Below, in pieces: positions 8,617 to 10,035 of a DNA stretch of 64,000 nucleotides. The notes beneath the pieces were generated by a model. That model was not told the origin of the DNA and made no database searches. It worked only from the letters and a program-made list of their open reading frames with translations. Source of the DNA: Candidatus Accumulibacter cognatus. GTDB lineage: Bacteria > Pseudomonadota > Gammaproteobacteria > Burkholderiales > Rhodocyclaceae. The position numbers and the translations under genes were made by a program. The stretch covers positions 1,855,553 through 1,919,552 of the forward strand of contig CP058708.1 in NCBI GenBank assembly GCA_013414765.1, in the 5' to 3' direction. Every line of letters starts with the position of its first letter. The stretch's first letter is position 1.

Positions 8617-9693
8617 GTGACCCGACCCTGCAACGACACTTTCCTGCGCGCCCTGCTCAAGGAACCGACCGAGTACACCCCGGTCTGGCTGATGCGGCAG
8701 GCGGGCCGCTATCTGCCCGAATACTGCGAAACGCGCCGGCGTGCCGGCAGTTTCCTGCAGTTGTGCAAGAGTCCGGCCATGGCCTGCGAGGTCACCCTGC
8801 AGCCGCTCACGCGCTACAATCTCGACGCTGCAATCCTTTTCTCGGACATCCTGACGGTGCCCGATGCAATGGGACTCGGGCTTTATTTCACCGACGGTGA
8901 AGGACCACGCTTCGAACGTCCGCTGCGCGAGGAATGGGCGATCCGCGATCTGACCGCGCCGGACCCCTGGGATCATCTGCGTTACGTGATGGACGCCGTC
9001 GCTGAAATAAGACGGGCGCTGAACAATACCGTGCCGCTGATCGGTTTCTCCGGCAGCCCTTACACTCTCGCCTGTTACATGGTCGAAGGTGGCGCGAGTA
9101 GCGATTACCGGCGCATCAAGGGCATGCTCTACGATCGTTCGGACCTGCTGCATCGCATTCTGTCGGTCACTGCCGATGCCGTCAGCGCTTACCTCAATGC
9201 CCAGATCGAGTCCGGAGCACAGGCAGTGATGATTTTCGATTCCTGGGGCGGCTCGCTTTCGGCAGCCGCTTATCAGGAATTCTCGTTACCCTACCTGCGA
9301 CGCATCGTCGGTAGTCTGATCCGCAAACGAGCAGGGGAATATGTTCCGTCGATCGTGTTCACCAAAGGAGGGGGACTGTGGCTGGAATCGATTGCAGACA
9401 TCGGCTGTGATGCAATCGGCCTCGACTGGATGATCGATATAGGTGACGCGCGCCGGCGGGTGGGTCAGCGGGTCGCCCTGCAAGGCAATCTCGATCCTGG
9501 CGTGCTCTTTGCCTCTCCCGATCGGATAGCCGCCGAGGCCAGGAGCGTGCTGGACAGTTACGGTCCGTACAACACCGGTCATGTCTTTAATCTTGGGCAC
9601 GGGATTTCCCAGTTTACGCCACCCGAAAACGTGGCCGCTCTGGTCGATGCAGTACATACCCATAGCCGTCTCCTGCGTATAAAAAACGAATAA
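8617..9693 (+). CDS. hemE: Uroporphyrinogen decarboxylase HemE
   Basis: A 358-aa cytosolic enzyme that decarboxylates uroporphyrinogen III to coproporphyrinogen III in haem synthesis. The N-terminal signature [15 protein letters not shown], the catalytic Asp region in [16 protein letters not shown] and [17 protein letters not shown] are all visible. Translation starts at GTG 8617. It is followed by a 342-bp gap rich in DnaA-box-like sites before priA. Confidence 0.96.
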
Positions 9694-10035
9694 ATCGTGG
9701 TCTACCGGTTGACTTATTCACAGAAATGCCCACCACTTTTGCTGTCTGCTGAGAGCCCCTTGGAACCCCCGGCATGTTTTTTTAGTTTATTGATTTAAAA
9801 TGATTTTGTAATCGCCTATTTTTCCAGCGATCGGCTGAAACCCTTGTGAACAGAGCCTTTGCTCCACTTTTCGGCAAGCTGATCCACAGAGTTATCCACA
9901 GAATTGTGTATAGGCCGGAAAGCTGAGATAACTGAATGCCTTAGCTCGCATCACGAGGAGTAGAGAGATCTTTTCCCTGCTGGAAAAGCGCGATGACCCC
10001 CAGCAAATCAGCATTTCCCGGATCGGATCCATTGC
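9694..10035. other. Candidate replication origin or DnaA-regulated region (hemE-priA gap)
   Basis: This 342-bp gap has two exact matches to the DnaA box TTATNCACA: TTATTCACA at 9714-9722 and TTATCCACA at 9892-9900. Single-mismatch boxes lie at 9880-9888 (TGATCCACA) and on the other strand at 9905-9913, and a two-mismatch box on the other strand at 9845-9853. The three right-hand boxes are 12-13 bp apart. Between the left box and the cluster is a conspicuously AT-rich tract, about 9775-9823, that could be an unwinding element. dnaA itself is not in the window, so origin activity is inference. Confidence 0.5.

What the first reader, a model, noticed from the sequence alone, without database searches (positions are those of the whole stretch)
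9694..10035. DnaA-box cluster with AT-rich tract between hemE and priA: candidate oriC
Two exact TTATNCACA boxes (9714-9722, 9892-9900), two one-mismatch boxes (9880-9888 and, on the other strand, 9905-9913) and one two-mismatch box (9845-9853) lie in 200 bp around an AT-rich run (about 9775-9823). The 12-13 bp box spacing and adjacent unwinding-like tract are what an origin shows. In Caulobacter the origin is next to hemE. In betaproteobacteria it is usually by dnaA, so this may be the true origin, a second DnaA titration site, or a DnaA-controlled priA promoter.
Basis: partly seen in the sequence, partly recalled or inferred. Interest (0 to 1): 0.7.

Follow-up and report, generated by a model that had tools for sequence, protein, structure and literature searches.

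The report
Conserved DnaA-reactivation-like site beside priA
The cluster of DnaA-binding sites between hemE and priA is real and widely conserved, but it is laid out like the E. coli sites that recharge the replication initiator DnaA rather than like the chromosome's start point, which more likely lies by dnaA.

Summary
In detail: the boxes are where stated, form the best DnaA-box cluster in 800 kb sampled from this 5.17 Mb genome, and flank the most AT-rich 49 bp of the window. The oriC reading is not favoured. dnaA lies about 138 kb away with its own boxes and AT tract, and the segment between follows the strand bias of the hemE side (ln likelihood ratio 2.5 for GC skew, 5.2 for KOPS); four relatives are inconclusive. 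On the minus strand the three clustered boxes have the orientation and nearly the spacing of the E. coli DARS core (14/12 bp); the window has 13/12, 64 of 80 relatives' loci 14/12. With an IHF-like site and a box about 176 bp away, this module fills all 74 hemE-priA spacers examined and 18 of 21 from other families, up to 1.4 Mb from dnaA. Core matches recur elsewhere in many genomes; G125 lost the module, G218 has it in tandem. Best reading: a betaproteobacterial DARS-like DnaA-recharging site. Function is untested, and an origin is not excluded.

The parts
8617..9693 (+). hemE (uroporphyrinogen decarboxylase), left neighbour
   Evidence: TIGR01464, 410 bits, above cut-off
9714..9722 (+). distal DnaA box (TTATTCACA), preceded by TTGAC; 178 bp upstream of box II
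   Evidence: spacing 164-187 bp, commonest 176, in 74 of 74 spacers (window included)
9775..9823 (.). AT-rich tract (82% AT) holding the IHF-like site
9783..9795 (-). IHF-like site AATCAATAAACTA (one mismatch to WATCAANNNNTTR, consensus recalled)
   Evidence: 58 of 74 modules have one with <=1 mismatch against 12.4 expected in mononucleotide shuffles; 41 of 47 minus-strand sites fall in one 5-bp bin about 110 bp from box II
9845..9853 (-). weak box (CTGTTCACA, two mismatches), not seen in the consensus of relatives
9880..9888 (+). box III of the DARS-like core (TGATCCACA), 12 bp from box II
9892..9900 (+). box II of the DARS-like core (TTATCCACA), nearly invariant, flank CTGTGGATAAC on the minus strand
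9905..9913 (-). box I of the DARS-like core (CTATACACA), opposite to II and III; 13 bp from II here, 14 bp in most relatives and in E. coli
10036..12033 (+). priA (primosomal protein N'), right neighbour
   Evidence: TIGR00595, 554 bits, above cut-off

Best explanation
The hemE-priA spacer carries a DnaA-regulatory element of the DARS type (DnaA-reactivating sequence), not the chromosomal origin. ADP-DnaA, made after initiation by Hda-dependent hydrolysis, would bind box II and the oppositely facing box I head to head, with box III adding a third DnaA. IHF bending of the AT-rich tract would bring in the distal box about 176 bp away. The complex would release ADP, so that DnaA leaves, binds ATP and can fire the origin, most likely in the dnaA region. 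Shown here: box layout, conservation, IHF-like site, an hda gene, dispersal and occasional absence. Inferred: all binding and nucleotide exchange.
For: Same order and orientation (I opposite to II and III) and 14/12 start-to-start spacing as the triples found at E. coli DARS1 and DARS2; E. coli oriC and datA have no such triple. 64 of 80 hemE loci of relatives have 14/12. The triple occurs once in 800 kb of this genome, here, and not once in 20 shuffles of it. Model R1 built from 50 relatives scores DARS1 at 21.8 bits, above oriC (17.0) and datA (16.5), though DARS2 gets only 12.9. Module conserved in 74 of 74 spacers, IHF-like site in 58 of 74. hda, whose product makes ADP-DnaA, is present. 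R1 matches in 287 of 299 genomes of the order, up to 9 per genome, as expected of dispersed sites. Module kept next to hemE-priA 0.4-1.4 Mb from dnaA in four genomes, lost in G125, in tandem in G218. Papers: PMC5742627 (passages) gives box I opposite to II/III with equal spacing in both DARS; PMC10380432 (passages) calls the head-to-head I-II pair characteristic and essential.
Against: The window's own I-II spacing is 13, not 14, and box I is degenerate in much of the genus. Of 30 hemE loci from other families only 9 have the full 14/12 triple, while the distal box and box II are kept more widely, so the widest-conserved part is not DARS-specific. DARS2 scores below oriC and datA with R1. parS-like sites lie 11-19 kb from this locus and 118-126 kb from dnaA. 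Strand-bias evidence in four relatives is mixed. No biochemistry.
Confidence: 0.5

Rival explanations
1. It is the chromosomal origin (or a second, standby origin): DnaA-ATP assembles on the boxes, IHF bends the DNA and the AT tract opens.
For: Box cluster plus the window's most AT-rich tract plus IHF-like site; parS-like sites 11-19 kb away; conserved across families. Gao 2015 (PMC4403523, section 4 read) lists a putative oriC next to hemE in Ralstonia pickettii 12D, 291 kb from the dnaA one. Skew in G085 and GGGNAGGG counts in G079, G085 and G044 lean this way (G085 changes sign with GGG[CAT]AGGG).
Against: In this genome skew and KOPS between dnaA and hemE follow the hemE side. dnaA-dnaN has its own boxes and AT tract. 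No boxes in the G125 spacer and in 3 of 21 hemE-priA spacers of other families; tandem and multicopy occurrence. In seven complete relatives with hemE 141-340 kb from dnaA (G079, G085, G044, G159, G145, G030, G081) the parS-like sites lie within 10 kb of dnaA.
Confidence: 0.2
2. It is a datA-like site: three boxes facing one way with an IHF site between them hold or hydrolyse ATP-DnaA after the locus is copied, preventing re-initiation.
For: Distal box, III and II all face the same way with an IHF-like site between; E. coli datA has the same parts, with a 12-bp tandem pair and 162 bp between the strong boxes, against about 176 bp here. This part is the widest conserved.
Against: Order differs: datA is pair-IHF-single, here single-IHF-pair in the direction of the boxes. 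datA has no head-to-head box at 14 bp, whereas relatives keep it in 64 of 80 loci.
Confidence: 0.17
3. It is a DnaA/IHF-controlled promoter region of priA, tying replication restart to DnaA activity.
For: Position upstream of priA in 74 of 74 spacers (selected for adjacency) and 18 of 21 other-family spacers; TTGAC next to the distal box.
Against: In G244 (L332) the module lies beyond hemE in inverted orientation with no priA found in the locus; three more loci of genus g84 (L293, L294, L302) carry the core near hemE without priA. 19 of the 30 best core loci have neither hemE nor priA within reach.
Confidence: 0.13

Closest known systems
E. coli DARS1 (bioD-uvrB spacer, triple at NC_000913 813107-813141)
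   Same: Three boxes, I opposite to II and III, II-III 12 bp; shared CTGTGGATAAC around box II.
   Different: Window I-II 13 bp instead of 14; distal box and IHF-like site here; different neighbours. The DARS1 location is recalled; the triple was found there by geometry.
E. coli DARS2 (rppH-mutH spacer, triple at 2969135-2969169)
   Same: Same core geometry; IHF-like sites on the box III side, about 60-75 bp from box III there and about 85 bp in the window.
   Different: Fis sites and extra boxes of DARS2 were not looked for here; weak sequence score with R1 (12.9 bits). Location recalled, triple found by geometry.
E. coli datA
   Same: IHF site between same-facing boxes, 12-bp tandem pair, about 160-180 bp between strong boxes.
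   Different: Order of single box and pair is reversed; no head-to-head pair at 14 bp.
Putative hemE-adjacent oriC of Ralstonia pickettii 12D (Gao 2015, PMC4403523)
   Same: Same gene neighbour (hemE), three boxes, apart from a dnaA-linked cluster.
   Different: Called an origin there from DnaA boxes and Z-curves; its sequence was not fetched here, so identity with this module is inference.

Membership tests
DARS (DnaA-reactivating sequence) | Core of three DnaA boxes, box I opposite in orientation to II and III | tested here: met
   window 9905-9913 (-), 9892-9900 (+), 9880-9888 (+)
DARS (DnaA-reactivating sequence) | II-III spacing as in E. coli DARS1/2 (12 bp) | tested here: met
DARS (DnaA-reactivating sequence) | I-II spacing as in E. 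coli DARS1/2 (14 bp) | tested here: not met
   13 bp in the window and in L135 and L136; 14 bp in 64 of 80 relatives' loci. The window locus is therefore called DARS-like, not a DARS
DARS (DnaA-reactivating sequence) | IHF site beside the core (DARS2 type) | tested here: inconclusive
   consensus-like site with one mismatch, position conserved; no binding data
DARS (DnaA-reactivating sequence) | Fis site (DARS2 type) | not tested
   No Fis model was run
DARS (DnaA-reactivating sequence) | Stimulates ADP release from DnaA | not testable with these tools
   needs biochemistry
oriC | Cluster of DnaA boxes with AT-rich tract | tested here: met
oriC | Switch of strand asymmetry at the site | tested here: not met
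   own genome favours the dnaA side (lnLR 2.5, or 0.7 with near blocks only, and 5.2); relatives mixed
oriC | Kept in all relatives | tested here: not met
   32 of 34 family genomes examined (own included) keep boxes downstream of hemE; G125 has none in its 78-bp spacer; G081 has none, but there hemE is not followed by priA within the 1.3 kb read, so it is weak evidence. 3 of 21 other-family spacers lack them
oriC | Highest copy number in growing cells; autonomous replication | not testable with these tools
   no reads, no cells
datA | Tandem pair, IHF site, third box, all same direction | tested here: met
   (IHF site by consensus only)
datA | Order pair-IHF-single in the direction of the boxes | tested here: not met
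   here single-IHF-pair

The most novel reading that the evidence does not exclude
The hemE-priA module is an ancient betaproteobacterial origin or standby origin that coexists with the dnaA-dnaN cluster, so that much of the group carries two potential starts, one of which has been turned into a DARS/datA-like DnaA switch.
Probability: 0.15. Interest if true: 0.85.

Novelty: new variant of a known kind. Interest (0 to 1): 0.55.

Why it matters
The papers seen here report DARS2 homologues in E. coli-related gammaproteobacteria (PMC4245941, PMC8682772, passages). A conserved DARS-like element across betaproteobacterial families, held beside the restart helicase gene, would extend DnaA recharging to a large group for which no such site turned up in the paper searches made (listings only, open-licence papers), and would give a testable alternative to 'second origin' predictions next to hemE (PMC4403523). 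The exact origin is said to be uncertain even for Burkholderia cenocepacia chromosome 1 (PMC4948915, passages).

Tried and rejected
A proteobacterial dif consensus (recalled) found no site with up to 3 mismatches, so the terminus was not placed. KOPS polarity is clear only in the window's own genome; in G079, G085, G044 and G159 the outer segments show weak polarity, so relatives were not used as proof. In the own-genome likelihoods, blocks holding dnaA and hemE (L019, L026) and four far blocks (L050-L053) were left out. A hairpin between boxes I and III was tested on 50 sequences: 77.8% of cells pair, and cells changed on both sides (35) are reached by 1 of 500 shuffles, but pairs changed on both sides (7) by 74 of 500; both arms are DnaA boxes, so RNA structure was not pursued. 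Paper searches: oriC with hemE in betaproteobacteria 0 papers; Accumulibacter origin 0; Rhodocyclales 1, unrelated by its title; DARS with betaproteobacteria 1, on TraR, not opened. The claim 'not described' rests.

Full report
What is there. The window is bases 1855553-1919552 of a single 5,169,514-base contig. Organism names come only from relatives: the best hemE matches in the named collection are Accumulibacter and other Rhodocyclales. The boxes stand as described. Genome-wide there are 34 exact TTATNCACA sites against 21 for the reversed control pattern, so single boxes mean little; the cluster is what counts. In 800 kb sampled it is the best 300-bp cluster, score 9, the best unrelated place 3.

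Is it the origin? dnaA is at 1726941-1728317, about 138 kb left, followed by dnaN and gyrB, with yidC and mnmE on the other side (the 44-aa frame next to dnaA is probably rpmH, not tested). Exact boxes lie on both sides of dnaA; the dnaA-dnaN stretch read (311 bp) holds one exact and five two-mismatch boxes, and the spacer has a 78% AT tract. In this genome mean GC skew is -0.019 on the dnaA side, +0.012 between dnaA and hemE and +0.020 beyond hemE; a switch at dnaA is favoured over one at hemE by ln 2.5 (wide sample; 0.7 with near blocks only). GGGNAGGG (KOPS-like) counts are 19:27, 9:1 and 33:4, ln 5.2 the same way. Within the contiguous 400 kb the absolute minimum of the cumulative curve is at 1637485, left of both, with a local minimum near 1725000. 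Four complete relatives with hemE 141-272 kb from dnaA give ln ratios for skew of +1.4 (G079), -2.0 (G085), +0.8 (G044), +0.2 (G159) and for GGGNAGGG of -3.1, -2.0, -0.6, +2.0: inconclusive. parS-like sites lie 11-19 kb from this locus in the window's genome but within 10 kb of dnaA in seven relatives where hemE is 141-340 kb away: G079, G085, G044, G159, G145, G030, G081.

Conservation. Of 80 named hemE loci, 73 have priA next door and were kept; 7 were dropped (L095, L108, L122, L126, L128, L129, L132), of which L122 still shows the boxes. In the 73 and in the window a box pair stands 164-187 bp apart, 176 being commonest (36 of 74). The consensus is TTGACTTATNCACA, an AT tract with an IHF-like site, then CCACAAAGTTATCCACAG and an inverted box. 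An IHF-like site with at most one mismatch is found in 58 of 74 against 12.4 expected, 41 of 47 minus-strand ones in one 5-bp bin. Within the genus, the spacer DNA is recognised in 21 of 28 genomes, own included. Of 34 family genomes examined (own included, all but one single-contig), 32 keep boxes downstream of hemE. G125 does not, though priA still follows after 78 bp. G081 does not, but hemE there is not followed by priA within the 1.3 kb read. Two of the 36 searched (G051, G072) were not looked at.

What it resembles. Read on the minus strand the cluster is box I, inverted box II, box III. The triples at E. coli DARS1 and DARS2 have the same orientation and spacing 14/12; oriC and datA have none. 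The E. coli places were recalled, apart from oriC, which the record annotates. 64 of 80 relatives' loci have 14/12 with at most five mismatches in total, one has 15/12 and 15 have no hit. The window has 13/12 with one, zero and one mismatches. The triple is found once in 800 kb of this genome and zero times in 20 shuffled copies. A sequence model of the core from 50 relatives finds the window (33.9 bits) and DARS1 (21.8), then oriC (17.0), datA (16.5) and DARS2 (12.9): by sequence alone it separates DARS1 but not DARS2 from other box sites.

Breadth. The model matches 287 of 299 genomes of the order and 138 of 140 genera at E <= 0.001, with one match in the window's genome and nine in G125. 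Of the 30 best loci fetched, 11 show hemE nearby, 8 of these with priA, and 19 neither. I then took one genome from each of 30 families, all chosen among genomes with a model match (the 12 without were not used). hemE is followed by priA in 21; 18 of these carry the distal box 163-188 bp from box II, and the 3 with spacers of 26-75 bp do not. Outside those 21, L332 has the module inverted and L343 has a box pair 188 bp apart. Nine of the 30 loci have the full 14/12 triple. hemE and dnaA are about 1.4 Mb apart in G391, 1.1 Mb in G216, 0.6 Mb in G418 and 0.4 Mb in G298, all four with the box pair. G218 has two modules in tandem.

Mechanism. hda is present, so ADP-DnaA should be made and must be recharged; in E. 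coli this is what DARS sites do (PMC5742627, PMC10380432, passages seen). The head-to-head I-II pair is the part described as essential for ADP release (PMC10380432). I therefore take recharging of DnaA as the most likely role (0.5), with the 13-bp spacing of the window and the weak box I of its genus as the main doubts. If box I has truly decayed in this genus, the remaining same-facing boxes plus IHF site would act more like datA (0.17). Origin activity keeps 0.2, priA control 0.13.

Relation to the literature. Gao 2015 (PMC4403523, section 4 read) lists a hemE-side oriC with three boxes for R. pickettii 12D besides the dnaA one; Ori-Finder counts hemE among its indicator genes (PMC2275245, passages). 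It is likely, but not shown here, that this prediction rests on the same module. In B. cenocepacia chromosome 1 the origin features are said to be too dispersed to fix the exact origin (PMC4948915, passages).

Noticed in passing
L338 (G218) 717-754 and 1174-1220: The whole module (distal box plus three-box core) is present twice in tandem between hemE and priA.
   Followed up: partly
G319, G347, G397, G463 (genus g84; places): Pairs of DARS-like cores about 275 bp apart in several genomes of one genus.
   Followed up: no
L317 (G125): This genome lost the hemE-priA module (78-bp spacer) yet has nine core matches elsewhere.
   Followed up: partly
alignment A1, columns 8-19 with 33-44: Boxes I and III partly covary as an inverted repeat around box II.
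   Followed up: partly
G000:C1:1846476-1846491 and 1853836-1853851: parS-like palindromes beside OxyR-like and htpX genes, 11-19 kb from the spacer and 118-126 kb from dnaA.
   Followed up: partly
G000:C1:37573-37869 and 2103121-2103417: Two equal-scoring DnaA-domain-like ATPase genes (525-aa frames), probably copies of a mobile-element ATPase.
   Followed up: no
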